Origin: Sphingobium jiangsuense
Lineage (GTDB): Bacteria > Pseudomonadota > Alphaproteobacteria > Sphingomonadales > Sphingomonadaceae
Length of the DNA stretch: 64,000 nt
Reading direction: 5' to 3'
NCBI RefSeq assembly: GCF_014196495.1
Contig: NZ_JACIDT010000005.1
Coordinates: 124,001-188,000, forward strand
In this document: positions 1 through 17,686 of the stretch, piece after piece
Position numbering within the stretch: the stretch's first letter is position 1
Layout: each line of letters begins with the position of its first letter
The notes under the pieces: model-generated
What the model was told of the DNA's origin: nothing
The model's input: the letters and a program-made list of their open reading frames with translations, nothing else
Database searches by the model: none
Program-made: the position numbers and the translations under genes

Positions 1-855
1 GAGCGCGATGCCGGCGGTGGTCAGCAGGCCGGTGAACGGCGCGAACCAGCCCGACCGCGCCGTCCCCCGGATCAGCGAGGTGTTGAAATCGTCGAGCAGC
101 CCCTTGTAGCGCGCCAGATTCTCCTTTTCGCGCCCGGCCTGCTTGATCAGCCGCACGGCGGCCACCGTCTCCACCAGATGCGCGGTGAAGCGGCTGCGGT
201 TTTCCGCCACCCTGGCCCAGCTGCGCTGCGCGATCCGCTTGAAGAGAATGGTCGCGACGATCAGCACCGGCACGATGGCCGCCAGCCCCAGCAGCAGCGC
301 GGGCGCGAGCAGCCAGAGCAGCAGGCCCGACAGGCACAGGCGCAGCACCGCCGAAAGGAATTCCGGCGGCCCCTGGATCAGCAGCGGCTCCAGCATGTCC
401 ACGTCGCGGTCGGCGCGGGCGATGATGCGCCCGGCGCGGGTGCGGTCGAAATAGCCGACGCTGAGCGTCTGGACATGGGCGAAGACGCGCGCGCGCAGGT
501 CGTTGAGCAGGCGGATCGCCGCGACGCCCGCGAAATAGTGCGACAGACCGCCGAGCGCGAAGCGCCCGCCCCATGTCGCCGCCAGCCCGATACAGGCCCA
601 GAGGATCAGCGGCAGGTCGATCCCGCCCTGCGCATGGCGCAGCCCCCGGTCGATGACGAGGCCGATCAGCAGCGGCCGGGCGAAGATCACCAGCACCTGC
701 ACGATCTCGATGGAAACTACCGCCGCGATCTGCGCGCGGATCGGCGCGACCAGCGGCAGCAGGCGGCCGACCATGCCCCGGTTCAGCGCCTTCTTCGCCA
801 GCTTTTCCTCAAGCTCTATGTCGGAAAGGGCCGTATCCCCCCGGAATGCGTTCAT
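1..855 (-). CDS. ABC exporter half-transporter, transmembrane part (partial)
   Basis: Only the N-terminal 285 codons are in the window; the nucleotide-binding domain lies beyond the left edge. The visible part is an ABC transporter type-1 transmembrane domain with hydrophobic helices near residues 40-60, 75-100 and 180-230. It carries the usual cytoplasmic coupling sequence (RARVFAHVQTLSVGYFDRTR, then GRIIARADRDVDML) just before the central helix pair. It starts two bases after the stop of the neighbouring half-transporter, so the two are almost certainly co-translated as a heterodimer. The neighbour has a degenerate ATPase site, so this subunit is expected to supply the canonical catalytic residues, but that part cannot be seen. 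Family assignment is firm; substrate is unknown, though the operon points to desulfurization products. Confidence 0.85.
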   Translation of the reverse strand, partial: MNAFRGDTALSDIELEEKLAKKALNRGMVGRLLPLVAPIRAQIAAVVSIEIVQVLVIFARPLLIGLVIDRGLRHAQGGIDLPLILWACIGLAATWGGRFALGGLSHYFAGVAAIRLLNDLRARVFAHVQTLSVGYFDRTRAGRIIARADRDVDMLEPLLIQGPPEFLSAVLRLCLSGLLLWLLAPALLLGLAAIVPVLIVATILFKRIAQRSWARVAENRSRFTAHLVETVAAVRLIKQAGREKENLARYKGLLDDFNTSLIRGTARSGWFAPFTGLLTTAGIAL

Positions 856-857
856 CG

Positions 858-2651
858 TCAGATACCCATAAGCGCGCGATAGGCGGGATTGGTCGCGGCG
901 AGCGTGGCATGGGTGCCCTCGGCCACGATCTGCCCGGCGGACAGCACCAGCACCCGGTCGGCGGCGAGCGTGGTGGACAGGCGGCTCGACACGATCAGCA
1001 TGGTCAGCGGCCGCGCGCTTTCGCGGCGCAGGCGGCGGATATTGTCGATCGCGCGCCGCTCCGTCGCGGCGTCGAGCGCGCTGGTCGCGTCGTCCAGCAC
1101 CAGGATGTCGGCATCGGCCAGCAGCGCGCGGGCTAGGCAGATGCGCTGGCGCTGGCCGCCGGACAGGGTCACGCCCCGGTCGCCCATCCGCGTGTCGAGG
1201 CCGTCGCTCAGCCGGGCCAGCACTTCCCCGGCGGCGGCCATGTCCAGCGCGCGCTCCAGCTCGGCGTCGCTCGCGTCCGGCGCGGCGAGGCGCAGATTGG
1301 CGGCGAGGCTGTCGGAAAAGAGGAAGCTTTCCTGCGGCAGCACATGCACTTGCCGCCGCAGCTGGCTGAGGTTGAGATCGCGCACGTCGTGCCAGCCCGC
1401 CGCGTCCGAGCCGATTTCCAGCCTGCCCTTGTCCACATCGACGAGGCGCGGCAGCAGCGCGGTGAGGATGCTCTTGCCCGATCCGGTCGCGCCGACCAGC
1501 GCGACGACCTCTCCCGGCTGGACGGTCAGGCCGATGTCGTGCAGCACCGCCGCGCCGTCGCCCAGCGGGGAGGCGGAGACATGGGACAGGCGAAAGCCCA
1601 GCGGCCCTTCCGGCGGCACTTTTCCGCCGGAGACGATGGCCGGTTCGGCGTCCAGCACCTCCCAGATGCGCGCGGCCGAGGCGCGGGCGTCGGCGATGAC
1701 CTGCAACAGCCGCCCTATGCCCTCGATGCGCAGCACCAGCGTATTGACCACCAGCAGCGCGGCGACGAGCGCGCCCAGCGTCAGCTCGCCCCGGCCGACC
1801 ATCCAAGCGCCGAAGCCCAGCACCCAGGCATGGCCGAGCGCGATGATCGTCTGCGGCAGCGGAACCCGCCGCGACGCATGGACGATGGCCGCGCGCGCCT
1901 CGCGCCGGAAGACGTCGACATGGTGGCGGAAGCGCCGCGTGCGCGCGTCGCCCAGCGCGAACGCCTTGATCACGCGCACGCCGTTCACCCCTTCGGACAG
2001 GTCCTGCGTCACCGCGTCATAGGCGTCGCCGATGCGGCGGTCGAGCGCGACCAGCGCGTCCGCCTCCGCGCTCAACAACGCGATGCCGAGCAGCAGCAGC
2101 GCGAGCGGAACCGCCGCCAGCCAGGGCGAATAGAAGAACAGCAGGCCCAGCGAGATGAGGACGATCAGGCCGGTTTCGAAGATCTGCCGCCAGAAGTTGA
2201 TGAGCGCGTCGCGCACCTTGTCGGCGTCGCGCGTCATCCGCGTCACCATCTCGCCTACGCCGTGCCGCCAGTGATAGGCGAGGTCGAGCCGCTGCACCTG
2301 CACCAATATGCGCTCGCGCAATATCGTCAGCAATTGCTGGCCGATGGCGAGGGACAGCAGCCCCGCGCCATATTGCACCACCGCCCGCGCCAGCGACAGC
2401 GCGAGCAGGATGCCGATCCAGAACCAGACGCGGCCATAATCCAGCCCGCCCGCCGCCTCGACGGTGACGAGCTTGCCCGCCTGCGCCTCCTGCACCGCAT
2501 GGCCGACCAGCACCTGCTGCCCGACCAGCGCGATATTGACGCCCGCCAGCATCAGCGCGGTCGCCGTGAACCGCCACGGCATCTCGCCATAGATGGCGAG
2601 ACAGCGGAGCAGCGGGCTGCCGCGCAGCGGGGGGAGGCGCGCCTGCGTCAT
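858..2651 (-). CDS. ABC exporter half-transporter with degenerate ATPase site
   Basis: A 597-residue protein with an N-terminal six-helix type-1 ABC transmembrane domain (about 1-330) and a C-terminal nucleotide-binding domain. Walker A is GATGSGKS (387-394), the Q-loop lies at 440, the signature LSGGQ at 496-500 and Walker B is ILVLDD (516-521). Two catalytic positions differ from the family norm: the glutamate after Walker B is Asp521, and the H-loop histidine (usual AHRLST) is a serine (SSRLST, about 555-560). That combination is typical of the non-catalytic half of heterodimeric exporters. The ATG at 2651 overlaps the stop of the upstream desulfinase-like gene (ATGA), so the exporter belongs to that operon. 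Export of a desulfurized product is an inference from context. Confidence 0.9.
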   Translation of the reverse strand: MTQARLPPLRGSPLLRCLAIYGEMPWRFTATALMLAGVNIALVGQQVLVGHAVQEAQAGKLVTVEAAGGLDYGRVWFWIGILLALSLARAVVQYGAGLLSLAIGQQLLTILRERILVQVQRLDLAYHWRHGVGEMVTRMTRDADKVRDALINFWRQIFETGLIVLISLGLLFFYSPWLAAVPLALLLLGIALLSAEADALVALDRRIGDAYDAVTQDLSEGVNGVRVIKAFALGDARTRRFRHHVDVFRREARAAIVHASRRVPLPQTIIALGHAWVLGFGAWMVGRGELTLGALVAALLVVNTLVLRIEGIGRLLQVIADARASAARIWEVLDAEPAIVSGGKVPPEGPLGFRLSHVSASPLGDGAAVLHDIGLTVQPGEVVALVGATGSGKSILTALLPRLVDVDKGRLEIGSDAAGWHDVRDLNLSQLRRQVHVLPQESFLFSDSLAANLRLAAPDASDAELERALDMAAAGEVLARLSDGLDTRMGDRGVTLSGGQRQRICLARALLADADILVLDDATSALDAATERRAIDNIRRLRRESARPLTMLIVSSRLSTTLAADRVLVLSAGQIVAEGTHATLAATNPAYRALMGI

Positions 2652-3703
2652 GCCGCGACGAGCGCGCGCGCCGCCTCCAGCGGGCGGGCGTCGATCCACT
2701 CGCCGATGTCGACGCGCTGCGGGATGAAGCCCCGGCGGTGGAGGAAATCGGCGAAATCCTGAATGCCCACGACCGACGCTTCGGAAAGGTCGGTGCGCAG
2801 CCGCGTCTGCGCATCCTCGCCATAGGCGACGCTGACCCAATATTCGCTGCTGTTGGTTTCGCGGGCGAGATAGCGGCGCACCTCTGACGGGTGATCCTGC
2901 GCCCAGCTTTCCGCGCGCAACACCTGCTCGACGATGGTGACGGCGGCGTCGAAATGATGGTCGAGCAGATGCCCGTCCACCGCCAGCGTGCGCGGCGTGC
3001 CGTTGTTCGCGCGGACGAGAGGGTCGGGATGCGCGCCGGTGTCGATCACCGTGGTGAGGCCGAATTGATGCGCCGCCTGCGCGCCGTGCACGCCCTTGAG
3101 GAAGATCGCGTCCACCTCGCCGCGCAGCAGCGCGATGAGTTCGAGGTTATTGGCGCGCGCCCGGCTGGTGGTGCGGCCCTGCCAGCTCAGCGTGCCGCCG
3201 ATATTCACCGCCTGCCCTTCGCTGTAATGCGTCTCTATGTCCTGATCGACCAGCTCCACGTCGGACACCTCCAGTCCTTCGAGCCGCAGCGCGTTTTCCA
3301 GCCCGCGCAGCGCCTGCGCCCGGCTGAAGTCGATCTCGACGCTCTTCCAGTTGGGCAGGCCGAAGCGGCGGCCCTTGAGGTCGCGCACGCTGGCGATGCC
3401 GGACTCCGGGCGGGCGAGGATGAGCTGCGTCTCGTCCGCCCAGGACAGGCCGATCACCCGCGTGTCGCGCCCGCGCGCCCTGGCGCTGATCGCCGGGATG
3501 TTGCCGCCATGGCGCACCGAATTGCGCACCGTGTGGGAGAAATGGGATTCGCGTTTCGAAAAATCGTCGGATTCGAGCAACGAGGACAGCTTCGTGCCCT
3601 GCCGCCGAAAGGCTTCCTCCAGCCAGCCCTGCTGGATGGCGATGCCAAGGCCGGTGGGAACGGGGCAGCGTGTGTACCAGAGGGTGTCGAGCGGTTCGGA
3701 CAT
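2648..3703 (-). CDS. DszB-like desulfinase paralogue 1
   Basis: A 351-residue protein with the periplasmic-binding-protein-like fold of the nitrate/sulfonate family but no signal peptide, so probably cytoplasmic. It matches 2'-hydroxybiphenyl-2-sulfinate desulfinase (DszB) at the known active site: a CPVP motif with Cys13 near the N-terminus (DszB Cys27), then His54 and Arg64 in H-x9-R-x-GG, the spacing of DszB His60 and Arg70. DszB cleaves an aryl sulfinate to release sulfite. A strong Shine-Dalgarno (GAGGAGATCACC) precedes the ATG. It lies 41 bp downstream of a DszA-like monooxygenase and overlaps the exporter gene, so it sits in a monooxygenase-desulfinase-exporter operon. The alternative is a cytosolic sulfonate-binding protein, but the retained Cys/His/Arg set argues for an enzyme. 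Substrate unknown. Confidence 0.72.
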   Translation of the reverse strand: MSEPLDTLWYTRCPVPTGLGIAIQQGWLEEAFRRQGTKLSSLLESDDFSKRESHFSHTVRNSVRHGGNIPAISARARGRDTRVIGLSWADETQLILARPESGIASVRDLKGRRFGLPNWKSVEIDFSRAQALRGLENALRLEGLEVSDVELVDQDIETHYSEGQAVNIGGTLSWQGRTTSRARANNLELIALLRGEVDAIFLKGVHGAQAAHQFGLTTVIDTGAHPDPLVRANNGTPRTLAVDGHLLDHHFDAAVTIVEQVLRAESWAQDHPSEVRRYLARETNSSEYWVSVAYGEDAQTRLRTDLSEASVVGIQDFADFLHRRGFIPQRVDIGEWIDARPLEAARALVAA

Positions 3704-3744
3704 GGTGATCTCCTCGGCAAGGAAAGGGATGGGGCAGGCCGCTT

Positions 3745-5103
3745 CTAAAGCGCGGCTTCTTCGAGCGGCTGCGGCGTGGTCCGCCGCCGGTTGGGGTTGG
3801 CGGGACGCGGCAGGCGTAGATGGTCGCGCAGCGTCGTGCCTTCATAGTCGGTGCGGAAGATCCCGCGCCGTTGCAGTTCCGGCACCACCTGATCGACGAA
3901 ATCGGTCAGCGATCCGGGCAGCAGCGGCGGGATGAGGTTGAAGCCGTCGGCGGCGTCGCGCTCGAACCAGTCCTGTATCTGGTCGGCGACATCGACCGCC
4001 GTGCCCAGCACCACCCGATGCCCGCGCACCGCGTTGAAGCGCAGGAAGAGCTGGCGGATGGTAAGGTTCTCCCGCCGCGCCAGCGCCGTCAGTTGACGCC
4101 AGCGGCCCTTGCCGTTTTCCGGCTCCGGCAGGTCGGGCAGCGGGCCGTCGAGCGGATAGCCGCTGACGTCCTGCCCCATCAGGTTGAGGTCGCCGGAAAA
4201 ATCGACCGCTTCCTCCAGCGCGCCGAACCGGTCCTGCGCCTCCTGAAGGCTGGAGCCGATGGTGTAGGACAGGCCCGGCATCACCTTGAGCGTGTCGGGA
4301 TCGCGCCCATGGGCGGCGGCGCGCGCCTTCACGTCGGCATAGAAGGCCTGCGCATCCTCGATGAATTGCGCGGCTGCGTAGATCATCTCGGCATGGCGCG
4401 CGGCGAAATCGCGCCCGACCTCCGAATTGCCCGCCTGCGCGAACACCGGATAGCCCTGGATCGGGCGCGGCATGTCGAGCACCGAATCGAGGTGATAATA
4501 GGGCCCGTCATGGTGGACGGGGTGCACCGCGCCGGCATCGAGATAGATGCCGTTCGCGCGATCGGCGCGGTCGAACGCATCGTCCTCCCAGCTGTCCCAC
4601 AGCGCCTTGGCCAGCGCGACGAACTCGTCGGCGCGGGCATAGCGTTCCTTATGGGTGAGCGGTTGATCGACGCCGAAGCTGCGCGCGGCGCCGTCGGCCA
4701 GCGAGGACACGATGTTCCAGCCGATCCGCCCGCCGCTGATATGATCGAGCGAGGCGAAGCGGCGGGCGAGCGCATAGGGCTGCTCGAAATTGGTGTTCAC
4801 CGTGGCGACGAGGCCGATATGGCTGGTGATGCCGGCCAATGCGGCCGTCACCGTCAGCGGCTCGAAATCGAGAAAGGCGTGGCGCCGGTCGATGCCCCTG
4901 GTGCTGTCGCCGCTTTGCCCGACGAAGTCCGCGAAGAAGGCTGCGTCGAGCTTGCCACGCTCGGCGGTGCGGACCAGATCGGCCCAATAGCGGAAATCGG
5001 GAAGGCCGGTGTCGGCGGACTGCGGCTGGCGCCACGCGCCGGGATGGTGGCCGTGGCGGGTCAGGAAAACGGCAAGGGCAAGCTGGCGCTTCGTCGTCGT
5101 CAT
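3745..5103 (-). CDS. DszA/NtaA/SnaA-family FMNH2-dependent monooxygenase
   Basis: A 452-residue luciferase-like monooxygenase, the length of DszA (about 453). The sequence follows the NtaA/SnaA/DszA subfamily throughout: GAWR near residue 22, ARTAERGKLD-type helix (VRTAERGKLDAAFFAD), ISGGRIGWNIVSSL near 140, RYARADEFV, and a C-terminal block AADGFNLIPPLLPGSLTDFV followed by RGIFRTDYEGTTLRDHL, nearly as in DszA. Family members oxidise sulfones or aminopolycarboxylates using FMNH2 from a separate reductase; no reductase is encoded here. I chose ATG 5103 over an upstream ATG at 5130 because GGAG precedes it at suitable spacing. It lies between a class II aldolase-like gene and a DszB-like gene, which suggests oxidation of an organosulfur compound to a sulfinate passed to the desulfinase. 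Confidence 0.85.
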   Translation of the reverse strand: MTTTKRQLALAVFLTRHGHHPGAWRQPQSADTGLPDFRYWADLVRTAERGKLDAAFFADFVGQSGDSTRGIDRRHAFLDFEPLTVTAALAGITSHIGLVATVNTNFEQPYALARRFASLDHISGGRIGWNIVSSLADGAARSFGVDQPLTHKERYARADEFVALAKALWDSWEDDAFDRADRANGIYLDAGAVHPVHHDGPYYHLDSVLDMPRPIQGYPVFAQAGNSEVGRDFAARHAEMIYAAAQFIEDAQAFYADVKARAAAHGRDPDTLKVMPGLSYTIGSSLQEAQDRFGALEEAVDFSGDLNLMGQDVSGYPLDGPLPDLPEPENGKGRWRQLTALARRENLTIRQLFLRFNAVRGHRVVLGTAVDVADQIQDWFERDAADGFNLIPPLLPGSLTDFVDQVVPELQRRGIFRTDYEGTTLRDHLRLPRPANPNRRRTTPQPLEEAAL

Positions 5104-5177
5104 CGAGGATCGCTCCGTGGAACAGGCCATGGGATGCCGGGCGGGCCGCCGGGAAGGTCCGGCGCCCGCCCCGGCAA

Positions 5178-5927
5178 TTATTCCGCGGCCTCGGCGGCGG
5201 CGGTTTCGGGCAAGTGGATGGTGCCGTCATCGTCCACGCGGGCATTGGGCGGCACCAGCTTGCCCATCTTCCACTGCTGCTCCAGCACGCCGGGGCCGAA
5301 GGGCTTCGACCCGCCCAGCGCGGCGGCGAGCACCTGGAAGCGCGCGCCTTCCTCCAGCAGGACGATGGTGTTGACGAGGTCGCGCAGCCCCTTCCAGCTC
5401 CAGATGGTCGCGCCGCCGTTCGCCTCGACGATGCCGGGCACCTCGCGGTCGGCCTCGATCGCGTCGAGGATGAAGTCCGGCTCCGGCTGGCGGCGGTTGA
5501 TGTAGACCGGCAGCTGCGCGGTGAAGCGGAAGCGGCGGTTGGGCACATAGAGCAGGGGCAGTTCCGAATGCGCCTGCGAGTAGGCGCCCAGATGCGGCGT
5601 ATGTACATGGCTGATCGCGCGGAAATCGGGATATTTGCGGAACAGCTTCAGATAGCGCGCCTCGCCGCCCGCCTGCTCGCCCCAATAGAGGCGGCCGTCG
5701 AAATCGAGGACGCTGGTGCGCGGCTGGTCGGGGTCGTCCTCCCACAGCCCGGCATAGCTGAGCGTGACGATCTTGTCCTCGCCCGGAATGCGCAGCGCGA
5801 AGCCCAGCGTGCCGCTGGCCGAGATGGTGTGGGTTTCGCGCAGCAGGCGGAACGCCTTGCGGGCGTCCTTTTCGGCATTGGCGACGAACTGGATGGCGTC
5901 CTTGGAAAGACCGGGGATATCAGTCAT
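5178..5927 (-). CDS. Class II aldolase/adducin-fold protein, atypical metal site
   Basis: A 249-residue protein of the class II aldolase/adducin family (relatives include L-fuculose- and L-ribulose-phosphate enzymes). The first two zinc-ligand histidines are present as H107-V-H109 in ISHVHTPHLGAYS. The third, normally in an NHG motif, is replaced: the equivalent stretch reads EANGGATIWSW, with Gly171 where His is expected. The usual SGN phosphate-binding loop also reads ASGTLGF. The zinc site may therefore be altered or completed by another residue such as H112. It starts 12 bp after the stop of DszB-like paralogue 2 and lies upstream of the DszA-like gene, so it belongs to the sulfur operon. 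Its reaction is not predictable; carbon-carbon cleavage or a lyase step on a sulfur metabolite is possible. Confidence 0.75.
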   Translation of the reverse strand: MTDIPGLSKDAIQFVANAEKDARKAFRLLRETHTISASGTLGFALRIPGEDKIVTLSYAGLWEDDPDQPRTSVLDFDGRLYWGEQAGGEARYLKLFRKYPDFRAISHVHTPHLGAYSQAHSELPLLYVPNRRFRFTAQLPVYINRRQPEPDFILDAIEADREVPGIVEANGGATIWSWKGLRDLVNTIVLLEEGARFQVLAAALGGSKPFGPGVLEQQWKMGKLVPPNARVDDDGTIHLPETAAAEAAE

Positions 5928-5939
5928 GGCAATTCCCTT

Positions 5940-7031
5940 TCAGGCTGGAACGGTGGAGGATTGGGCCGTCTGCGCATTGAGCGCGCGGGCGGCTTCTAGC
6001 GGGCGGGGATCGATCCAGTCCGCCAGATCGAAATCGGCATCGAGGAAGCCGTGGGTGAACAGGAATTTCTTCTGCTGGTCGAACAGCGCCAGCCGTTCGG
6101 CGTCGAGCGTGGGGTGCAGCCCCTCGTGCAGATGGGCATAGGCGCGATCGACCGCATCCGCGCTGCCCTCGGTTTCATATTCCAGTATCTCGCGCAGGCG
6201 GTTGGGCTGCCGCGCCACCCAGTCCGCTGCGCGCAGCGTGACGGCGAGGAAGCGGACCAGCAGGTCGAAATGATCGTCGATCAGGCTTTGATGGACGGTG
6301 ATCGGGCGCGGCGTGCCGTTGTTGACGCGGAAGCGCCGGTCGGGAAGGGCGTCGAGGTCGATCGCAACGACAAGGCCGTTTTCCCGCGCCTGATCGAGCG
6401 CGGCGGCCCCCTTCACATAGATGGCGTCGACAGCGCCATTGACCAGCGCCTCGATCGGCCACAGCCGCCCGACGCCGCTGCGCTGCTTCTCCCCGCGCGG
6501 CAGCAGATCGCGGCCCGAACCGCCGATATTGCGCAGGCGGTCCTCGGTCTCCACCAACTCGACATCGTCGAAGGTCAGCCCGGCCGAGGCCAGCGCGCCC
6601 TTGTACCCGGCGAGCGCCATGCCGCGCGCGATGCTGGTGCCGCGCACATGGCTGGGGATGTCGTTATGGCTCCAGCCCGGCAGCGCCAGCCGCTTGCCCT
6701 TGAGATCGGCGGCGGACCCTATCCCGCTGTCGGGACGGGCGAGGATGAGCTGGCTTTCCTCGATCCAGGTCAGCCCGACCAGCCTGGTCGGCTCCCCTTG
6801 CGCGCGGGCGGCGATGGCGAGCATGTTGCCGCCTTCGCGGATCAGCGTGGGCAGGCGATGGTCGTAATGATGGCGGCCCAGTTCCGAGCCGGATTCCTGC
6901 AAGGTGCGCAGCGCGATGCCGTCGCCCTCGAACGCCTCGGTCAGCCAGCCCAGCTTGTAGGCGATGCCCGTCGCGGTCGGCACCGGACAGCGGGTGAACC
7001 AGATTTCATCAGGGCGGGTGGGTGAGGCCAT
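5940..7031 (-). CDS. DszB-like desulfinase paralogue 2
   Basis: A 363-residue paralogue of the proteins encoded at 2648-3703 and 7149-8213. It has the TRCPVPT motif with Cys15 and the His55-x9-Arg65-x-GG block, exactly the DszB active-site spacing, followed by GLTWIEESQLILARPDSGIG and the conserved NNGTPRPITVHQ near residue 225. No signal peptide is visible. I placed the start at ATG 7031, preceded by GGAGAAG seven bases upstream, rather than an in-frame upstream codon at 7082 that has no ribosome site and adds residues not shared by the paralogues. The gene is followed closely by the class II aldolase-like gene. Its 5' side is separated from paralogue 3 by a terminator-like hairpin, so it probably has its own promoter or is expressed by read-through. 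Substrate unknown. Confidence 0.72.
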   Translation of the reverse strand: MASPTRPDEIWFTRCPVPTATGIAYKLGWLTEAFEGDGIALRTLQESGSELGRHHYDHRLPTLIREGGNMLAIAARAQGEPTRLVGLTWIEESQLILARPDSGIGSAADLKGKRLALPGWSHNDIPSHVRGTSIARGMALAGYKGALASAGLTFDDVELVETEDRLRNIGGSGRDLLPRGEKQRSGVGRLWPIEALVNGAVDAIYVKGAAALDQARENGLVVAIDLDALPDRRFRVNNGTPRPITVHQSLIDDHFDLLVRFLAVTLRAADWVARQPNRLREILEYETEGSADAVDRAYAHLHEGLHPTLDAERLALFDQQKKFLFTHGFLDADFDLADWIDPRPLEAARALNAQTAQSSTVPA

Positions 7032-7091
7032 GCCATCTTCTCCATCGGGATTGTTCGCGGGAGAAAGGATCGCAAGAGCCATGCCAGAATG

Positions 7092-7112
7092 AAAAAGCCC
7101 GCATATGCGGGC
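7092..7112 (-). terminator. Rho-independent terminator between two DszB-like genes
   Basis: A perfect palindrome GCCCGCATATGCGGGC occupies 7097-7112 and is followed on the minus strand by five T residues (A run at 7092-7096). This is an intrinsic terminator for transcripts coming from the desulfinase-like gene at 7149-8213. The next gene on the same strand starts at 7031, so the hairpin splits what otherwise looks like one operon. Confidence 0.75.
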
Positions 7113-7148
7113 CTTCCGAATGGAGCGGAGCGAGAGGGTGCGCGATAT

Positions 7149-8213
7149 TCAGCAGGAATGCTGTTGCGAATTCACCGCATCGGCCCGCCGCTTCATCACC
7201 GCGTCGAGAGGTTCGCGGCAGATCCAGCGGTCGATGTCGACGGGCGCCTCCAGAAATCCGTGCACCCACAGGAAGCCGGCCTGCACGCGCAGCATCTCTA
7301 TCCGGTCCTCGGACAGGTCGGGGTGGAGGGAGCGGCGGAAATTGTTGCGATAGGCCGCGTCCACGCCCTCTATGCCGGACAGCGTCTCATGCGCGATGAT
7401 CGGCTTCAGCTCCACCGGGTTGAGCGCCGCCCAGTCCGCCGCGCGCAGGCTCTGTTCCAGAAAGCATTCCACGAGATCGCGATGCTCGTCCAGCATGTGC
7501 TGGTGCACGGTGATCGGGCGCGGCGTGCCGTTGTTGATCCGCGCGAGGCGGCTGGGATAGGCGTCGAGATCGATCGCCACCGCCAGCCCCAGGCGCGACG
7601 CCGCCTCCGCCGCCGCGCTTCCCTTGACATAGACCGCGTCCACCCGGCCGGCGGCCAGCCATTCGAGGCCCAGCCACAGGCGGCGCATGCCTTCCCGGCT
7701 CGGTTGCTCGCGCGGGGGTGCGGGCACCTCGACCAGATCGATATCCTCCAGCGTCAGCCCGCCCAGCGCCAGCGCGCTCTGTATGCCGTGCAGCGACATG
7801 CCGCGCGCGATGCTTTCGCCCCGGCTGCGTGCATAGCCGGGCAGGCCGAAGCGCAGGCCCTTGAGGTCGCGCGGGTCCAGCACCTGCATGTCGGGGCGCA
7901 CCATGATCGCCTGCCGTTCGTCGATCCAGGCCAGCCCGATCACCCGCGTGGGTATGCCGAGCGCGCGCCCGGCCAGCGCCTGGATGTTGCCGCCCTCGCG
8001 GAACAGATGGCGGTCGCGTTCCTCCGGGTCATGCTCGACGAGGTTGAGGCCGTCCTCGATCACCCGCTTCACCCCGATGCCGTTGCGGCCGAAGGCTTCG
8101 TCCATCCAGCCCAGCCGATAGGCGACGCCGGAGGCGGCGGGCACCGGGCAGCGCATCATCCAGATATTTTCGAGCCGGGGCGGCCGCCCGATCCCCCCAC
8201 CATGTCCCGGCAT
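7149..8213 (-). CDS. DszB-like desulfinase paralogue 3
   Basis: A 354-residue third member of the DszB-like set. It keeps the CPVP motif (Cys22), Arg72 followed by E-GG, and the NNGTPRPITVHQ block. The putative catalytic His61 is 11 rather than 10 residues before Arg72, so either a one-residue insertion has occurred or the histidine is displaced. ATG 8213 was chosen because AAGGAG lies seven bases upstream; the frame stays open upstream for 90 more codons, but those residues are not family-like. It is the first gene of the minus-strand sulfur set, divergent from the SsuA-like lipoprotein, and is followed by an intrinsic terminator at 7092-7112. Substrate is unknown and may differ from that of its paralogues. 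Confidence 0.7.
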   Translation of the reverse strand: MPGHGGGIGRPPRLENIWMMRCPVPAASGVAYRLGWMDEAFGRNGIGVKRVIEDGLNLVEHDPEERDRHLFREGGNIQALAGRALGIPTRVIGLAWIDERQAIMVRPDMQVLDPRDLKGLRFGLPGYARSRGESIARGMSLHGIQSALALGGLTLEDIDLVEVPAPPREQPSREGMRRLWLGLEWLAAGRVDAVYVKGSAAAEAASRLGLAVAIDLDAYPSRLARINNGTPRPITVHQHMLDEHRDLVECFLEQSLRAADWAALNPVELKPIIAHETLSGIEGVDAAYRNNFRRSLHPDLSEDRIEMLRVQAGFLWVHGFLEAPVDIDRWICREPLDAVMKRRADAVNSQQHSC

Positions 8214-8542
8214 CTCGTCGCTCCTTGATCGTCCTGCCCATCCTTGCGCCATGGAAAGACGCCGTCCGACAGGGAGATTATGTCCTTGCGCCGGCAGAGC
8301 AAGGGCCATGCCAGAAGAGGTGCGCGCCGCATGCCCGCAGTCCGCGGTCGCATCCCGGCCCCGAAGCGTTTCATTTTGAACAGTCGCGCCGCCGCGCTGC
8401 TGAGATTTCACCAGTTTTTCCGTTTTCCCGGCGCGGGCGAGGCGCGTTTCCGGCGATCGCGCCATTTGGCACGCGACATGCAACGCCGGAAGGGATCGTT
8501 TCCAGCCTCATGCCAGACAGGCGACAGATACGGAGCCGGACA
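8214..8542. promoter_or_regulatory. Divergent intergenic region of the sulfur island
   Basis: About 330 bp separate the minus-strand desulfinase genes from the plus-strand ABC/SsuD operon. Both operons must start here, so this is where a sulfur-starvation regulator would act. I see a ribosome site for each flanking gene (CTCCTT at 8221-8226 for the minus gene, GGAG near 8532 for the plus gene). I see no confident -35/-10 pair or inverted repeat. Confidence 0.4.
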
Positions 8543-9697
8543 GTGACAGTTGAGTATTCCCTTCCTCCCCGGATCAGCATCGCGGCGCGCTGGCGCCGGG
8601 CCGTCGCGCTCGTCATGTCGCTGGTCGCGGGCGCCGCGCTTTCCGCCTGCAATCCGGCCGGGGAGGACGGTCAGACCGGCCCGGCGCGGAGCGTCACCAT
8701 CGCCTCCATCGCCTATCCCTACAAGGGCGAGCAGGTGTTCAACGGCCTGACCGGCGTGGTCATCCAGCAGGGCTGGCTGAAGGAGCAGCTGGCGCAGAAG
8801 GGCGTCGCGCTGAACTTCACGCCGGTGCCCACGGCGGTCGGCGGGCCGCTGATCAACGAGGGCTTTTCCGGCAAGCGCATCGATTTCGCCGCCTATGGCG
8901 ATTTCCCCGCGATCATCGCGGTGGCGGGCGGCGTGCCGCTGCGCATCGTCGCGCCGGTCGGGCAGGGGCAGGAGGTCTATCTGGTGGTCCGCAAGGGGCT
9001 GACGGCGCGGGGCATTGCCGACCTCAAGGGCAAGAAGATCGCGCTGCATCGCGGCCGTCCGTGGGAATTGCCCTTTTCCAAGCTGCTCGACGCCAACGGC
9101 CTGAAGCTGGGCGATTTCAGGATCGTCAACATCAACCCGTCCGCCACCCCGGCCGCGCTCGAATCGGGCAGCGTGGATGCGGCAGTGCTGCTGTCCGACG
9201 GGCTGCTGGTCGAACAGCGCGGGATCGGCCGCGTGATCTGGTCGACCAAGGAGGCCCCCGCCGACTGGAAGATGCGCGCCGAGCTGTTCGCGCGGAAAGG
9301 CTTCGTCGATGAGAATCCCGAACTGACGCAGCTGGTCGTGGAGGCGTTCGTCCGTGCCGCCGCCTGGTCGTCGGACGAGGACAACCGCGCCGAGGTCGTC
9401 CGCAATGCGGCGCGCGGCGCGCTGCCGGAAGAGATCGTCGACAAGGATTACGCCCATTCCGGCATACCGTGGAAGGAGCGCTTCTCGCCGCTGTTCAGCC
9501 CGGCGGTGCGCACCCATTATCACTCCGTCGCCGACTATGCGTTCGATCGCGGCCTGATCCGCTCTAAAGTGGATGCCGACGCCCTGCTCGACGACCGCTT
9601 CGTGAAGCAGGCGCTGCGCGACCTGAAGCTGGAGGGTTTCTGGGCGGGGCAATCCGCAACCGCCGCCGCGCCCGCGCAGGCGGGGGGCAAGAGCTGA
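8543..9697 (+). CDS. SsuA-like substrate-binding lipoprotein
   Basis: A periplasmic binding protein of the nitrate/sulfonate/taurine family, about 384 residues. The N-terminus has a basic segment (RWRR), a hydrophobic stretch and a lipobox LSAC, so the mature protein is probably lipid-anchored at Cys. The body shows the family pattern: GVVIQQGWLKEQL, then GKRIDFAAYGDFPAIIA, then LKGKKIALHRGRPWELPF and ALESGSVDAAVLLSDGLLVEQRGIGRVIW. I chose the GTG at 8543 (GGAG seven bases upstream); an ATG at 8510 is the alternative. It overlaps the first permease by one base (TGATG), so it heads a binding protein-permease-permease-ATPase operon. Sulfonate or sulfone import is inferred from the two SsuD-like enzymes downstream. 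Confidence 0.85.
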   Translation: MTVEYSLPPRISIAARWRRAVALVMSLVAGAALSACNPAGEDGQTGPARSVTIASIAYPYKGEQVFNGLTGVVIQQGWLKEQLAQKGVALNFTPVPTAVGGPLINEGFSGKRIDFAAYGDFPAIIAVAGGVPLRIVAPVGQGQEVYLVVRKGLTARGIADLKGKKIALHRGRPWELPFSKLLDANGLKLGDFRIVNINPSATPAALESGSVDAAVLLSDGLLVEQRGIGRVIWSTKEAPADWKMRAELFARKGFVDENPELTQLVVEAFVRAAAWSSDEDNRAEVVRNAARGALPEEIVDKDYAHSGIPWKERFSPLFSPAVRTHYHSVADYAFDRGLIRSKVDADALLDDRFVKQALRDLKLEGFWAGQSATAAAPAQAGGKS

Positions 9698-10482
9698 TGG
9701 CGAGCCGTCCCCTTTCCACGCCGGCGGGCGCGGGCAGGCGCTTTTCGCCGGGGGTGATGCTGCCGCCGCTCGCGCTTCTCGCGCTGTGGCAGGCGGCCTG
9801 CCTCACCGGGCTTTTCCCCGCGCAGGTGCTGGTGCCGCCGAGCGAGGTCGCCCGCTCGCTCGCCGCGATGACCGCATCGGGCGAATTGCAGGCGCATATC
9901 GGCGACAGCCTCTGGCGGCTGCTGATCGGCTTTGCCATCGGCGCCGTGGCGGGCCTTGCCTTCGGTTCGCTCATCGCCCTGTCCCGCCTTGCCGAAACGG
10001 CGCTGTCCCCGCTGTTCCTGACCTTGTGGCAGGTGCCGGTGATCGCCTTCGTGCCGATGATGGTGCTGTTCCTCGGCATCGACGAGCCGTTCAAGATCGC
10101 GGTGGTGGCCATCGCCGCCTTCTTCCCGGTGGCGCTCGCCACCTTCGACGGCATACGCGGCGTGCCCAGGGCATGGTTCGAGGTCGCGCGCGTCTATCGC
10201 ACGCGCCTGCCCGATCTGGTCCGGCGCATATTGCTGCCCGCGACGGTGCCCGCGGTGCTGACCGGCCTGCGCGTCGCGCTGACCCGCGCCTGGGTCGTGC
10301 TGATCGCGGCCGAGCTGCTCGCCGCCGACAGCGGTATCGGCCAGATGATGGAAATGGGCCGCCAGCTCTTCCGGATCGACGTGGTGCTGGCGGGCGTGGT
10401 GGTCAGCGGGCTGATCGGCTTCCTGCTCGACCGGGGCGCCCGCGCCATCGAGCGTCGCGCCACCCGGTGGAGGACCGCATGA
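9697..10482 (+). CDS. ABC transporter permease 1, SsuC/TauC type
   Basis: A 261-residue inner-membrane permease with about six hydrophobic helices and the BPD_transp_1 cytoplasmic loop (EVARVYRTRLPDLVRRILLP, about residues 165-185) that docks on the ATPase. It resembles SsuC/TauC permeases of sulfonate and taurine importers. Its start overlaps the binding-protein stop and its stop overlaps the second permease start, so the three are translationally coupled. A second, distinct permease suggests a heterodimeric channel, whereas the well-known Ssu and Tau systems use one permease gene. Confidence 0.88.
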   Translation: MASRPLSTPAGAGRRFSPGVMLPPLALLALWQAACLTGLFPAQVLVPPSEVARSLAAMTASGELQAHIGDSLWRLLIGFAIGAVAGLAFGSLIALSRLAETALSPLFLTLWQVPVIAFVPMMVLFLGIDEPFKIAVVAIAAFFPVALATFDGIRGVPRAWFEVARVYRTRLPDLVRRILLPATVPAVLTGLRVALTRAWVVLIAAELLAADSGIGQMMEMGRQLFRIDVVLAGVVVSGLIGFLLDRGARAIERRATRWRTA

Positions 10483-11255
10483 CCGGCCTGCTTTCCCTTT
10501 CCCGCGCGCCGGTGCGGTTCGCCATCGGCCTCGCCGCGCCTGTGCTGCTGCTGCTCTGGTGGCAATGGCAGGCCACGGCCCATATTTCCACCTTCGCCCC
10601 GCCGGGCGCGGTCGGGCAGGCGGCCGCCGCGCTGATCCGCGACGGCACCTTGCTGAACGACATGCTCGCCACGCTGGGCCGGGCCTTTGGCGGCCTCTTC
10701 ATCGGCGCGCCGCTGGGCGTGGCGACCGGGGTGGCGATGGGCATATGGCGGCCGCTCGACCGGCTGCTCGGCCCGCTGCTTCACGGGCTGCGGCAGGTGC
10801 CGATGATCGGCTGGCTGCCGCTGATCGGCCTCTGGTTCGGCGTCGGCGAGGGCACGGAGCTGATCGTCGTCAGCATGTCCGCCTTCTTCCCGGCGATGCT
10901 CAACAGCCATGCGGGCGTCGCGCAGGTGGAGAGGCGCTATGAGGAGGTCGGCCGCATCTACGGCTTCGGCACGGTGCAGCGCATCCGCTTCATCCTGCTG
11001 CCCGCCGCCATGCCGCTGGTGCTGACCGGCCTCACCCAGTCGCTCGCCTTCGCGTGGATCGCGACGATCGGCACCGAGATACTGACGGGCGCGGGCAGCG
11101 GCCTCGGCGTCACCATGCAGCTCGCCCAGACGCAGCAGCGGCTCGACATCATGCTGGTGACGATCGCCGCCACCGCCCTGCTGGGTTTCGTCATCAACCA
11201 TCTCTTCCTGCGCCTGCGCCGCCGGCTGCTGCGCTGGCAACCCTCTTCGCTGTAA
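10479..11255 (+). CDS. ABC transporter permease 2, SsuC/TauC type
   Basis: A 258-residue permease with the same topology and an EAA-type loop (YEEVGRIYGFGTVQRIRFIL, about 151-170) characteristic of the sulfonate/nitrate/taurine class. The ATG at 10479 overlaps the TGA of permease 1 (ATGA). It is followed 13 bp later by the ATPase gene. It probably pairs with permease 1 in one import complex. Confidence 0.88.
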   Translation: MTGLLSLSRAPVRFAIGLAAPVLLLLWWQWQATAHISTFAPPGAVGQAAAALIRDGTLLNDMLATLGRAFGGLFIGAPLGVATGVAMGIWRPLDRLLGPLLHGLRQVPMIGWLPLIGLWFGVGEGTELIVVSMSAFFPAMLNSHAGVAQVERRYEEVGRIYGFGTVQRIRFILLPAAMPLVLTGLTQSLAFAWIATIGTEILTGAGSGLGVTMQLAQTQQRLDIMLVTIAATALLGFVINHLFLRLRRRLLRWQPSSL

Positions 11256-11268
11256 CTGGAGCATCCGC

Positions 11269-12144
11269 ATGAGCGCCGATACACGCCCCGCCCGACCCGG
11301 ACAGGACCATCCCGGCCAGAACCATCCCGGCAAGGAACGCGGCGCGCTGTCCATCGCCGGGCTGAACAAGAGCTTCGTGATCGGCGGGCGGCCCCGCCGC
11401 GTGCTGGAGGACATCAACCTGACCGTGCGGCCGGGGGAATTCGTCAGCATCGTCGGCGCGTCGGGCTGCGGCAAATCGACGCTGCTGCGCCTGATCGTCG
11501 GCCTCGACGCCGACTATGCCGGGGATGTCCGGCTCGACGGGCAGCGCATCTCCACCACCAGCCTCGACCGCGGCATTGTGTTCCAGGACCACCGGCTGTT
11601 CCCGTGGATGACGCTGGAGCAGAATATCGAGCTGGCGCTGCTCAACACTGACACGCCGAAGGAGCGCCGGGCGCAGATCGTCGCCGATCATATCGCGCTG
11701 GTGAACCTCAAGGGCTTCGAGAAGGCGTATCCGCATCAGCTTTCGGGCGGTATGGCGCAACGCGCGGCGATCGCCCGCGCGCTGGTGACGGAGCCCAAGC
11801 TGCTGCTGCTCGACGAGCCGCTGGGTGCGCTCGACGCGCTGACCCGCGTGCATGTGCAGAACGAGATCCAGCGCATCTGGATGACGCAGCGCTCGACCAT
11901 GGTGATGGTGACGCATGATGTGGAGGAGGCGCTCTATCTCGGCGACCGGGTGGTGGTGATGTCGCCCAATCCCGGCCGTATCCGCCGCATCGTGGAGGTC
12001 GATCTGCCGCATCCGCGCGACCGGCGCTCGCCGCTGCTGCACCGGCTGAAGGACGAGATACTCGCCGAACTGACATCGGGCGCGGGGCAGGGGGAGGAGG
12101 AGCCGACCAACCTCGTCCATCTGCCCAACCGGGAAGAGCGCTGA
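11269..12144 (+). CDS. ABC transporter ATPase, SsuB/TauB type
   Basis: A 291-residue ATPase with Walker A GASGCGKST, the Q-loop in VFQDHRLFPWM, signature LSGGMAQRAAIARAL, Walker B LLLLDEPLGALDA and H-loop VTHDVEEA. This is a complete canonical site, unlike that of the exporter at 858-2651. The pattern is that of SsuB/TauB/NrtD importers. An unusual N-terminal stretch rich in Pro, Gly, Gln and His (about residues 5-24, with a repeated HPG) precedes the domain. GGAG precedes the ATG. Confidence 0.9.
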   Translation: MSADTRPARPGQDHPGQNHPGKERGALSIAGLNKSFVIGGRPRRVLEDINLTVRPGEFVSIVGASGCGKSTLLRLIVGLDADYAGDVRLDGQRISTTSLDRGIVFQDHRLFPWMTLEQNIELALLNTDTPKERRAQIVADHIALVNLKGFEKAYPHQLSGGMAQRAAIARALVTEPKLLLLDEPLGALDALTRVHVQNEIQRIWMTQRSTMVMVTHDVEEALYLGDRVVVMSPNPGRIRRIVEVDLPHPRDRRSPLLHRLKDEILAELTSGAGQGEEEPTNLVHLPNREER

Positions 12145-12247: not shown

Positions 12248-13210
12248 ATGACCATCAGCAGCTATTGGCAGATCGACACCGCCGCCGAGCCGCGACGGGC
12301 GGAGCCTTCGCTCCGGCCCCGGCTCCCCGCGCTCGTGCGGGACCGGCGGCGACCGTCGCAGAACCGTTTCGATTATTATGCACAACTCGCGCAGGCCGCC
12401 GCGCAGACCGGCTTCGACGGCGTGTTCCTGCCCTACCGGCGGGACGCGGACGAAAGCCGCATCGTCGCGGCGGTCGTAGCCCGCGCCGCGCCGCGCATCG
12501 TCGTGGTGCCGGAATTCCCGGCCTCGGTCGGCTCGGCCGTCTATGCCGCCAAGCAGGCGACCACCTTCCAGCGCTCCACCGGGGGACGCTTCGGCTGGGC
12601 CATCGCCCCCGATGCGGACGCCGCCACCCGCGCGGCTGAGGGGGACGATATCGGCGACGATGCGCTCCATGAGCGGACCGACGAATTCCTGACCGTCGCG
12701 CGCGGCGTGCACGACCGGCGCCCCTTCACCTTCGCGGGCAGGCATTTCGAGGTGAAGGACGGCGGCTTTGACGCGCCGCTCAACCGCCTGCCCTTCCCGA
12801 AGCTGTTCCTTCAGGGCGAGGATGAGAAAGCGCTGGCCCTTTCCGCCCGTCATGCCGATGTCCACCTGTTCCGTGCTGCGCCCGCCGAGCGGCTGGCGGC
12901 GGCGATCGCGTGGCTGGGCGAGCTTGCCGCGCAGGCCGGGCGCCGCGTCGCCTTTGGCCTGATCCAGCCCGTGCTGGTGCGCGAAACGGAAGAGGAAGCC
13001 CGGCAGGAGGCCGCGCGCGGCGCGGCGGGCGAGGGCGCGCTGGTCGGATCCTTCGACGGCGTGGCGGCCGATCTTACCCGGCTGGCGGATCTCGGCATCA
13101 GCCACTTCGTCCTGTCGTCCACGCCTTCGCTGGAGGAAGGCTATCGCGTCGGCCAGCATCTGCTGCCGCGCCTCCATTCGCTGACCGGCGCGCGCCGCGC
13201 CGTGGCCTGA
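12248..13210 (+). CDS. LLM-class flavin monooxygenase, short SsuD-like
   Basis: A 320-residue luciferase-like monooxygenase, about 60 residues shorter than SsuD. Recognisable SsuD-like parts are RFDYYAQLAQAAAQTGFDGVFLPY, an FQRSTGGRFGWAI core strand, ERTDEFLTVARGV, and the terminal block LSSTPSLEEGYRVGQHLLPRL. The missing segment corresponds to part of the insertion region around the active site in full-length SsuD, so substrate range may differ. AAAGGAATGCAGC precedes the ATG. It is 13 bp upstream of the full-length SsuD-like gene and shares its operon with the importer. It probably needs FMNH2 from an unlinked reductase. Confidence 0.82.
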   Translation: MTISSYWQIDTAAEPRRAEPSLRPRLPALVRDRRRPSQNRFDYYAQLAQAAAQTGFDGVFLPYRRDADESRIVAAVVARAAPRIVVVPEFPASVGSAVYAAKQATTFQRSTGGRFGWAIAPDADAATRAAEGDDIGDDALHERTDEFLTVARGVHDRRPFTFAGRHFEVKDGGFDAPLNRLPFPKLFLQGEDEKALALSARHADVHLFRAAPAERLAAAIAWLGELAAQAGRRVAFGLIQPVLVRETEEEARQEAARGAAGEGALVGSFDGVAADLTRLADLGISHFVLSSTPSLEEGYRVGQHLLPRLHSLTGARRAVA

Positions 13211-13223
13211 AGGAGTATCGAGC

Positions 13224-14381
13224 ATGAGCATCGACTTTTACTGGCGCCTGCCCACCCATGGCTGCCACAGCAGCATCCATCGCGGATCCTACGATCGGGG
13301 CGACTGGTCGCCGCCCGGCCCTCACAACATCGCGCCCGGCTTCGGCCGCGATCAGGAAGAGGACGGCTTCGCCTATATCGACCATCTGGCGGAAATCGCC
13401 AAGGCGGCGGAGAGCGTGGGCTTTCTCGGCGGCCTCATCCCGTCCTTTCCCAATACCGACGATCCCTGGGTCATCTCCCCGCTGCTGGCGCGCGAAACGA
13501 AGAGCTTTCGCTTCATGATCGCCTTTCAGCCGGGGTTCGGCAATCCGGTCCACACCGCCCGCGCCACCGCCAGCCTCCAGCGGGCGACGGGCGGGCGGAC
13601 GCTGTTCAACATCATCACCGGCGGCGGCGGTCCCGCCCAGCTCTGGTGGGGCGACAGTTTCGCCCATGACGATCGCTACGGCCGCACCAGCGAATGGCTG
13701 GACGTGTTCCGGGGCGTCTGGTCCGGCGAGGGCTTCTCCTACAGGGGCCGCTTCTACCAGGTCGACGGGGCGGGCCTGCCTGCGCTGCTGCGCGAGGAGG
13801 AGTTTCCCGAACTGTGGTTTTCCGGCTCGTCCGAGGCGGCGTTGCAGGTCGCGTCGAAGCATGCGGACTATTATCTCTCCTGGCTGGAGCCGTTCGACCA
13901 GCTCACCGACAAGTTCGCCAAGGTGAAGGAGCGGACCGCCGCGCTGGGCGGGGAGCAGAAATGCGCGGTGCGCGTCGATCTGGTCGCCCGCCCGACCGAG
14001 GAAGAGGCATGGCGCGACATCCGCATCGGCTTCGAGAACGTGACCGACGCGACCCGCAACCAGTGGCGCGGGCAGGCGACGGATTCGGTCGGCGCGGCGC
14101 GTCAGGCGGCGCTGCGCCCGACCGAGGCGCGCCGTTATGAGGACCTGATCGTCGCGCCCAATCTCTGGGGTGGGTTCAACCTGCTGCGCGGCGGCCCGGC
14201 GCTGGGCATCGTCGGCAGCTATGAGCAATGTGCGGCGCGGCTCGACGAGCTGATCCAGCGCGGCGCGGACGGCTTCATCCTTGCGGGAACGCCGCATCTG
14301 GAAGAAGCCTGGCGCATCGGCGAGGAAGTGCTGCCGCTGCTCGGCCGCAACGCCTCCAGCCTGTTGCAGGCCGCCGAATAG
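13224..14381 (+). CDS. ssuD: Alkanesulfonate monooxygenase SsuD-like
   Basis: A 385-residue enzyme collinear with SsuD (381 in E. coli). It begins with FYWRLPTHG, continues with an RATGGRTLFNIITGG core, DRYGRTSEW, YLSWLEPFDQL, SPNLW-like APNLWGGFNLLRGG, and ends with the LAGTPHLEEAWRIGEEVLPLL signature. SsuD converts alkanesulfonates to aldehydes and sulfite using FMNH2 and oxygen. AAGGAG lies just upstream. It is the last gene of the import operon and is followed by a strong terminator. The presence of a DszA-like enzyme on the facing operon suggests the substrate set goes beyond simple alkanesulfonates; a sulfone or aromatic sulfonate is possible. Confidence 0.85.
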   Translation: MSIDFYWRLPTHGCHSSIHRGSYDRGDWSPPGPHNIAPGFGRDQEEDGFAYIDHLAEIAKAAESVGFLGGLIPSFPNTDDPWVISPLLARETKSFRFMIAFQPGFGNPVHTARATASLQRATGGRTLFNIITGGGGPAQLWWGDSFAHDDRYGRTSEWLDVFRGVWSGEGFSYRGRFYQVDGAGLPALLREEEFPELWFSGSSEAALQVASKHADYYLSWLEPFDQLTDKFAKVKERTAALGGEQKCAVRVDLVARPTEEEAWRDIRIGFENVTDATRNQWRGQATDSVGAARQAALRPTEARRYEDLIVAPNLWGGFNLLRGGPALGIVGSYEQCAARLDELIQRGADGFILAGTPHLEEAWRIGEEVLPLLGRNASSLLQAAE

Positions 14382-14658: not shown

Positions 14659-17022
<2,364 letters not shown>

Positions 17023-17686
17023 GCGGCGCCGGTTGCGCCGCTCTCCGGAGGGAGGCACAGCAAAGGCTGTGCCATCTTTTGCAAATCCTTGTTTTACATG
17101 GGTTTATCGAAAAACTGCCGCCGTGCCGCTGGTGCGAACACAACATTCCGAAAAGCCGCGCTGTTGGTTCTGCAACACTGTCGGGGATGGGCCGTTCGGC
17201 GTGGTTATCGGTGGCCGGACGCTTTGCGGCCGTTCTTCTCGGCCGTCGACCCGGTTTCGGCAGGCCAATAGCCCAGGACCGGATCGGTTCCGCCTGTACT
17301 CTCCGATCCCCGCCATATCGCTCGCCCCGTCCTTCAGGCAGACGCGTCACCGGCGCGCGACATGGGGCAGGTCCGGCGACAGGCTGTCCGATCCCGTGTC
17401 ATTGAACATGCCTCCCCTTTCCGCAGCAGCGGTTTCGATTCCCGGCCATGATCTTTTTCTGCCCCGAAGAGCTGCTTTTCTTCGTCAGGATTGCGCCTGA
17501 AGCTTTCTGACTATGACAGATATGTCATTCTGGCAAGGCTGTCTATAGGGCCACGGCGCAGCTTGTCGCCCTTGCGCAAAGGCGCGGTAAACGGCAAGGC
17601 GGTGGCCGGGCCGACCTTCTTGCCGATGACGGAAAAACCTATGTCCAGAAATGACATTCCTGTCTCTCCGCTGCGGGGGAAAGCGC
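17023..17686. promoter_or_regulatory. Long divergent intergenic region with two inverted repeats
   Basis: About 660 bp with no credible gene on either strand. Two structured sites are visible. GGCACAGC-AAAG-GCTGTGCC (17054-17073) is a perfect 8-bp hairpin in the leader of the receptor mRNA. ATGACA-GATA-TGTCAT (17513-17528) is a perfect 6-bp inverted repeat with the look of a dimeric operator, about 160 bp upstream of the FecR-like gene. The rest shows nothing I can name. Confidence 0.45.

What the first reader, a model, noticed from the sequence alone, without database searches (positions are those of the whole stretch)
2648..8213. Three DszB-type desulfinase paralogues with a DszA-type monooxygenase in a sphingomonad-like genome
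Three paralogues (2648-3703, 5940-7031, 7149-8213) keep a CPVP motif and the His-x9/10-Arg-x-GG block that in DszB hold the catalytic Cys27, His60 and Arg70. A DszA/NtaA-type monooxygenase lies between them. The classical 4S pathway has one DszB; three copies plus a class II aldolase-like gene and no obvious DszC point to a different organosulfur pathway or to several sulfinate substrates.
Basis: partly seen in the sequence, partly recalled or inferred. Interest (0 to 1): 0.85.

Follow-up and report, generated by a model that had tools for sequence, protein, structure and literature searches.

The report
Desulfinase trio with one altered copy
A Sphingobium-like bacterium carries three side-by-side relatives of the sulfur-removing enzyme DszB in a gene island likely switched on by sulfur starvation; two copies keep the complete catalytic triad and are likely active, while the third has lost a catalytic histidine, and similar 'complete plus altered' sets appear to have arisen independently in other bacteria, which suggests that the altered copy has a job of its own.

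Summary
Three minus-strand genes encode DszB relatives: in the PDB each matches only DszB (E 0.001), predicted folds of two match DszB best, and a tree places all three beside DszB and outside SsuA-type binding proteins. Cys27 and Arg70-x-Gly-Gly are kept in all three. His60 is kept in DszB1 and DszB2 but is Asp in DszB3 and its orthologues seen; the 'x10' His occurs only in this genome. The trio belongs to a larger island: DszA-family and SsuD-type monooxygenases, a divergent class II aldolase-like protein, SsuABC importer, TonB receptors, ABC exporter pair and, just outside the window, a sigma-54 activator, with sigma-54-type promoters before four genes. The family, often annotated as transport protein, is patchy but reaches Pseudomonas, Oxalobacteraceae, methylotrophs, rhizobia and actinomycetes. 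New: altered active sites arose in seven lineages, always beside a complete copy in the loci seen. In Pseudomonas the altered copy carries the equivalent of the inactivating C27S mutation and is the most conserved of the three; in sphingomonads DszB3 is the least conserved. Likely role: sulfur scavenging from more than one sulfinate, plus a non-canonical paralogue, perhaps a binder. Nothing has been assayed.

The parts
2648..3703 (-). DszB1: DszB-like protein with complete Cys/His/Arg triad (likely active sulfinate desulfinase)
3745..5130 (-). NtaA/DmoA-family FMN-dependent monooxygenase (DszA family)
5178..5927 (-). divergent class II aldolase/adducin-like protein; the third zinc His of canonical members (recalled) is Gly in a conserved EANGG motif
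5940..7031 (-). DszB2: DszB-like protein with complete Cys/His/Arg triad (likely active sulfinate desulfinase)
7149..8213 (-). DszB3: DszB-like paralogue with Cys and Arg but Asp in place of His60 (altered active site)
7071..7086 (-). sigma-54-like promoter before DszB2, 10 of 12 consensus positions
8298..8313 (-). sigma-54-like promoter before the DszB3 operon, 11 of 12
8467..8482 (+). sigma-54-like promoter before SsuA, 11 of 12
8510..9697 (+). SsuA-type substrate-binding protein with hydrophobic N-terminus followed by Cys (lipoprotein-like by reading); start inferred at the ATG after the promoter
9697..10482 (+). SsuC-type permease
10482..11255 (+). second permease (76% identical to an annotated ABC permease in L012)
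11269..12144 (+). SsuB-type ATPase
12248..13210 (+). luciferase-like monooxygenase LLM1, related to SsuD/MsuD
13224..14381 (+). SsuD/MsuD-type FMNH2-dependent monooxygenase
14659..17022 (-). TonB-dependent receptor (start inferred at the ATG after the promoter)
17059..17074 (-). sigma-54-like promoter before the TonB receptor, 11 of 12
858..2639 (-). ABC exporter half 1, downstream of DszB1
1..855 (-). ABC exporter half 2, cut by the window edge (whole gene L117:9008-10855); the sigma-54 activator lies further left (L117:7755-8894)

Best explanation
The island is likely a sulfur-starvation scavenging system in which DszB1 and DszB2 would act as two cytoplasmic, cofactor-free sulfinate desulfinases for different substrates, while DszB3, which has lost the catalytic histidine, is predicted to bind sulfinates rather than cleave them efficiently. 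Inferred sequence of events: with sulfate scarce, the neighbouring sigma-54 activator turns on the operons; TonB receptors and SsuABC import an organosulfur compound; the reduced-flavin monooxygenases (DszA-family, SsuD-type, LLM1) oxidise it to a sulfinate or free the sulfite directly; DszB1/DszB2 transfer the Cys proton to the sulfur-bearing carbon and release SO2/sulfite for assimilation; the exporter pair would remove the desulfurised carbon skeleton. Shown here: homology, residues, tree, gene order, promoter-like sites and the activator gene. Inferred: every reaction, the substrates, the starvation signal and the role of DszB3.
Against: No enzymatic or expression data. Identity to DszB is only 24-27% for DszB2 and 24% for DszB3, and the three fall beside, not inside, the DszB/TdsB clade. 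Residues 63 and 65 near the DszB site differ. SsuD-type enzymes release sulfite from sulfonates alone, so desulfination need not be the only route. The nitroreductase gene of sister islands, a possible flavin reductase, is missing here; the nearest homologue is 47% identical elsewhere. Only 36 of 86 loci have a DszB gene with a sigma-54 site at 11 of 12 (53 at 10 of 12; at that threshold 3 of 47 SsuB and 1 of 43 SsuC1 genes also score), and sigma-54 activators also serve other pathways.
Confidence: 0.6

Rival explanations
1. All three are active desulfinases; DszB3 uses Asp60 or another residue in place of His and simply serves a third substrate.
For: DszB H60Q keeps activity, about 17-fold reduced (PMC6100217 passage); DszB3 keeps Cys27 and the RxGG motif; it is under purifying selection (median pN/pS 0.31).
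Against: DszB3 also lost the His63 kept in 174 of 186 DszB-like rows and, in the window copy, Thr/Ser25; two orthologues (L023, L026) also lost the Cys; one copy lies in two frames (L024); it is the least constrained of the three here.
Confidence: 0.25
2. The family has become cytoplasmic sulfonate/sulfinate-binding or sensing proteins with no chemistry, keeping DszB residues for ligand binding.
For: DszB has the periplasmic-binding-protein fold; 28 of 186 members have Ser at the Cys position and are well conserved in Pseudomonas.
Against: 142 of 183 copies in the 86 loci keep the complete Cys/His/Arg triad; co-operonic C-S monooxygenases; an SsuA is already in the island.
Confidence: 0.1
3. 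The triad-complete copies are proton-transfer enzymes on another leaving group (for example decarboxylation).
Confidence: 0.05

Closest known systems
[quoted passage not shown] PDB 2de2, 2de3, 2de4) and TdsB
   Same: Fold; Cys27 and RxGG in all three; His60 in DszB1 and DszB2; no leader by reading; a DszA-family monooxygenase as neighbour
   Different: Sister clade, about 24-27% identity; three paralogues; sigma-54-type promoters; no DszC seen in the island; NNGTPR motif not found in DszB; one copy with altered triad
SsuA/TauA sulfonate-binding proteins
   Same: Same periplasmic-binding-protein fold; public annotation often uses a binding-protein name
   Different: No leader by reading, different clade, Arg70 in 0 of 61 SsuA-type rows
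bdsABC operon of Gordonia terrae C-6 (PMC3868597, passages read)
   Same: Desulfinase with DszC- and DszA-like monooxygenases and sulfonate-type ABC genes, induced by an organosulfur source
   Different: One desulfinase; actinobacterial; no sigma-54 system in the passages read
SfnR/Msu/Sfn sulfate-starvation genes of Pseudomonas (PMC8234197, passages read)
   Same: FMNH2 monooxygenases and a sigma-54 activator for organosulfur use
   Different: No DszB-type enzyme in the passages read; whether this activator is an SfnR orthologue was not tested

Membership tests
DszB desulfinase family (broad sense) | Closer to DszB than to SsuA/TauA binding proteins | tested here: met
   Tree, PDB sequence search, fold Z for DszB2 and DszB3
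DszB desulfinase family (broad sense) | Cys27 | tested here: met
   Present in DszB1, DszB2 and DszB3
DszB desulfinase family (broad sense) | His60, DszB1 and DszB2 | tested here: met
DszB desulfinase family (broad sense) | His60, DszB3 | tested here: not met
   Asp in DszB3 and its 8 orthologues
DszB desulfinase family (broad sense) | R-x-G-G motif with Arg70 | tested here: met
   All three window copies; Arg70 in 186 of 186 DszB-like rows
DszB/TdsB clade (narrow sense) | Branches inside the clade of characterised DszB and TdsB | tested here: not met
   The 18-row DszB/TdsB clade is sister to the clade with the three window copies (quick tree)
DszB desulfinase family (broad sense) | Releases sulfite from an aromatic sulfinate | not testable with these tools
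   Needs purified protein
DszB desulfinase family (broad sense) | Cys/His/Arg meet in one pocket | not testable with these tools
Classical 4S dsz operon | dszA, dszB and dszC together | tested here: not met
   No acyl-CoA-dehydrogenase-type gene among the island genes scanned; elsewhere in the genome not excluded
SsuA/TauA binding proteins | Falls in the SsuA-type clade and over the SsuA_fam cut-off | tested here: not met
   TIGR01728 below cut-off for all three, though it is below cut-off for the island's own SsuA too
SsuA/TauA binding proteins | Secretion leader | tested here: inconclusive
   None seen by reading; no predictor was run
Sigma-54 regulon | -24/-12 promoters and an activator gene nearby | tested here: met
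   by sequence only
Sigma-54 regulon | Transcription depends on RpoN | not testable with these tools
   Needs a mutant

The most novel reading that the evidence does not exclude
Bacteria have repeatedly (seven lineages) turned one DszB-type desulfinase into a catalytically altered partner that is kept beside complete copies: a natural sulfinate-holding pseudoenzyme (C27S-type in Pseudomonas, H60D-type in sphingomonads) that captures, delivers or senses the sulfinate in a sigma-54-controlled sulfur-scavenging module.
Probability: 0.3. Interest if true: 0.8.

Novelty: new variant of a known kind. Interest (0 to 1): 0.58.

Why it matters
DszB is the slow, product-inhibited step of biodesulfurisation. 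Here a sister family, mostly filed under transport-protein names, appears in Sphingobium, Pseudomonas, Oxalobacteraceae, rhizobia and others, in islands with likely sulfur-starvation control. If true, it offers many new desulfinase candidates, a natural C27S-type protein under strong selection as a test of what the fold does without catalysis, and a possible route by which aromatic or unsaturated sulfinates return to the sulfur cycle.

Tried and rejected
Rejected: chance or misannotation (E-values, tree, folds). Rejected: three SsuA copies (tree; no leader by reading; an SsuA already in the island). Rejected: the His-x10-Arg reading of DszB3, since none of the 8 orthologues has that His.

Led nowhere: the PDB search with the class II aldolase-like protein found nothing at E 0.01; a text search for Sphingomonas AD109 (a dsz strain that I recall) found 0 papers. 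No printed description of this island or of altered DszB paralogues showed in the listings of text searches; the library lacks most subscription journals and holds no bioRxiv collection. In the passages seen, PMC6395730, PMC5443232, PMC11852219 and PMC4839641 describe no such island; PMC7661421 mentions putative desulfinases of a Gordonia only in passing; PMC12316311 and PMC10179380 concern cysteine sulfinate desulfinase. PMC12168087 and PMC6100217 (passages) concern DszB itself.

The tree is quick (no bootstrap), that FastTree. Shuffles for promoter counts kept base composition only. Structural tables are a second look at Foldseek's matches.

Full report
WHAT IS THERE. The three ORFs of the finding are open at 2648-3703, 5940-7031 and 7149-8213, all on the minus strand; here they are DszB1, DszB2 and DszB3. 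Among 177,635 distinct PDB sequences each matches DszB and nothing else at E 0.001. Pfam gives NMT1 (PF09084) and NCBIfam gives SsuA_fam below its cut-off. Most named relatives in the listed 120 are called 'ABC transporter substrate-binding protein' or similar. These are the only three matches in the 4.8 Mb genome. Same-genus genomes G188 and G223 hold contigs of the same lengths (187,665 and 49,678) as contigs of Sphingobium wenxiniae and S. quisquiliarum, so the genus is most likely Sphingobium (inference).

THE ISLAND. Minus strand, in order of transcription: DszB3, DszB2, class II aldolase-like, NtaA/DmoA-family monooxygenase, DszB1, ABC exporter half 1, exporter half 2 (runs out of the window), sigma-54 activator (L117:7755-8894, just left of the window). 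Plus strand, divergent: SsuA, two permeases, SsuB, LLM1, SsuD-type; then a TonB receptor on the minus strand, and a second TonB receptor beyond the activator. Eight sphingomonad loci from named genomes (L019-L026) and one megaplasmid (L012, Sphingobium sp. TomTYG65) share the core layout; L023 ends after DszB2, L025 shows no exporter pair and L024 has a broken DszB3. In all nine the activator sits between DszB3 and DszB2 and a nitroreductase gene between SsuB and LLM1. Here the activator (69% identical to that of L019) lies beyond the exporters instead, and that nitroreductase gene is absent; the nearest homologue is 47% identical on another contig. In the genus, 6 of 94 genomes match DszB3 at E 1e-60, 5 of them (own included) with a true DszB3 of at least 74% identity; in the order, 5 of 296 genomes match DszB2 at E 1e-15. 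The island is accessory.

ACTIVE SITE. In 186 DszB-like rows (183 from 86 loci plus 3 of the window; 3 of 186 BLAST hits were dropped for short coverage) position 27 is Cys 151, Ser 28, Gly 3, Arg 3, gap 1; position 60 is His 172, Asp 9, Tyr 3, Phe 1, Ile 1; Arg70 is 186 of 186. In 70 rows from the DszB search (of 76; the rest too short), Cys is 68, His 70, Arg 70. DszB3 of the window reads Cys-Asp-Arg. It also lacks the His63 found in 174 of 186, and has Met where DszB has Ser25. In DszB, C27S is inactive, H60Q loses about 17-fold, Ser25 bonds His60 and RxGG is conserved; the calculated mechanism is protonation of the ring carbon by Cys27 (PMC6100217, passages).

THE RECURRENT PATTERN. Of 86 loci, 37 have three copies; 34 of these 37 hold exactly two complete triads and one altered (in one of the 34 the altered copy is cut by a contig end), and 3 have three complete. 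All 41 loci with an altered copy (the cut one included) also have at least one complete copy; the 28 single-copy loci are all complete. Loci were found with a DszB2-led query, which favours the last point, and many stretches end before the island does. On a 190-row tree built without the active-site columns, complete versus altered needs 7 changes: Pseudomonas Ser (24 rows), sphingomonad Asp (9), Massilia/Pseudoduganella Arg (3), Duganella Gly (2), and single rows in Burkholderia, Methylovorus and Methyloversatilis. In the less biased draw of 397 Pseudomonadota genomes (own included), 8 have the family at E 1e-40 (at most 5 candidates scored per genome); 6 of these 8 hold an altered copy, and all 6 also hold a complete one. 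Five of the 6 carry the same Ser type, so they are not independent.

SELECTION. Sphingomonads: DszB3 median pN/pS 0.31 against 0.22 for DszB1 and 0.23 for DszB2 (9-10 sequences each); the aldolase-like gene has 0.29 and the DszA-family gene 0.21. One DszB3 (L024) lies in two frames. So DszB3 is constrained, but least of the three. In Pseudomonas it is the reverse: across 19 loci with all three, the Ser copies are the most alike (median identity 0.883, against 0.793 for the Cys neighbour and 0.833 for DszB2), and the Ser copy is more conserved than its Cys neighbour in 144 of 171 pairs, which are not independent; median pN/pS 0.17, 0.31 and 0.20 in 15 loci. The Ser copy there is not decaying. 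This does not carry over to DszB3 of the window.

CONTROL. With anchors GG and GC required, three sites in the 64 kb window match at least 11 of 12 positions of TGGCACGN4TTGCW (consensus recalled), and all three precede island operons (DszB3, SsuA, TonB); a fourth (10 of 12) precedes DszB2; 20 mononucleotide shuffles gave 0.3 on average at 11. In 86 loci, 42 of 185 DszB genes, 14 of 67 aldolase-like and 18 of 71 SsuD-type genes have such a site within 200 bases upstream, against 0.05, 0 and 0.1 in shuffles; also SsuA 4 of 51, TonB 3 of 37, DszA-family 3 of 18, LLM1 2 of 29; SsuB, the permeases, activator, exporters and nitroreductase have none. By locus, 36 of 86 have a DszB gene with such a site; no actinomycete locus does. 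That sulfate starvation is the signal is inferred from the gene content and from SfnR in Pseudomonas (PMC8234197, passages).

WIDER FAMILY. Plasmids of Sinorhizobium meliloti (pSymA, L016) and Ensifer canadensis (L014) carry two DszB-like genes with an acyl-CoA-dehydrogenase-type gene and an NtaA/DmoA monooxygenase, a composition like dszABC. Most of the actinomycete loci pair one copy with SsuABC-type and SsuD-type genes.

READING. DszB1 and DszB2 are most likely desulfinases, for different substrates since their lineages are separate. DszB3 is an altered paralogue, most likely a binder or weak enzyme. The exporter pair may remove the carbon skeleton; DszB is inhibited by its product (PMC12168087, passages). 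All of this paragraph is inference.

Noticed in passing
window 5178-5927 (-), and 67 relatives in the loci: The class II aldolase-like protein keeps the H-V-H pair and a further His (H120) in at least 90% of 68 sequences, but the third zinc His of canonical members (recalled) is Gly in a conserved EANGG motif; the conserved Glu168 could offer a two-His-one-carboxylate metal site (speculation). It has no PDB sequence match at E 0.01.
   Followed up: partly
L014, L016 (Ensifer canadensis and Sinorhizobium meliloti plasmids): Two DszB-like genes with an acyl-CoA-dehydrogenase-type gene, NmrA-type and FAD oxidoreductases and an NtaA/DmoA monooxygenase: a 4S-like set on rhizobial plasmids.
   Followed up: partly
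L024:7596-8584: The DszB3 orthologue of Sphingomonas sp. 7/4-4 lies in two overlapping frames: disrupted or a sequencing error.
   Followed up: no
L049, L051, L054, L086 (Pseudomonas): A Ser-type DszB copy beside an intact DszB2-type copy without the usual Cys-type DszB1 neighbour in the stretch held; for L049 the whole genome has only these two matches at E 1e-20.
   Followed up: partly
window 17651-18466 (+) and 19919-21007 (+): Two FecR-domain genes beyond the TonB receptor, with a GntR/FCD regulator gene between them (18551-19246): a possible surface-signalling system next to the island.
   Followed up: no
L080, L081, L084 (Massilia, Pseudoduganella): A third DszB-like copy with Arg aligned to the catalytic Cys; in the two Massilia copies printed the CPVP motif is rewritten and His60 is Tyr.
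   Followed up: no
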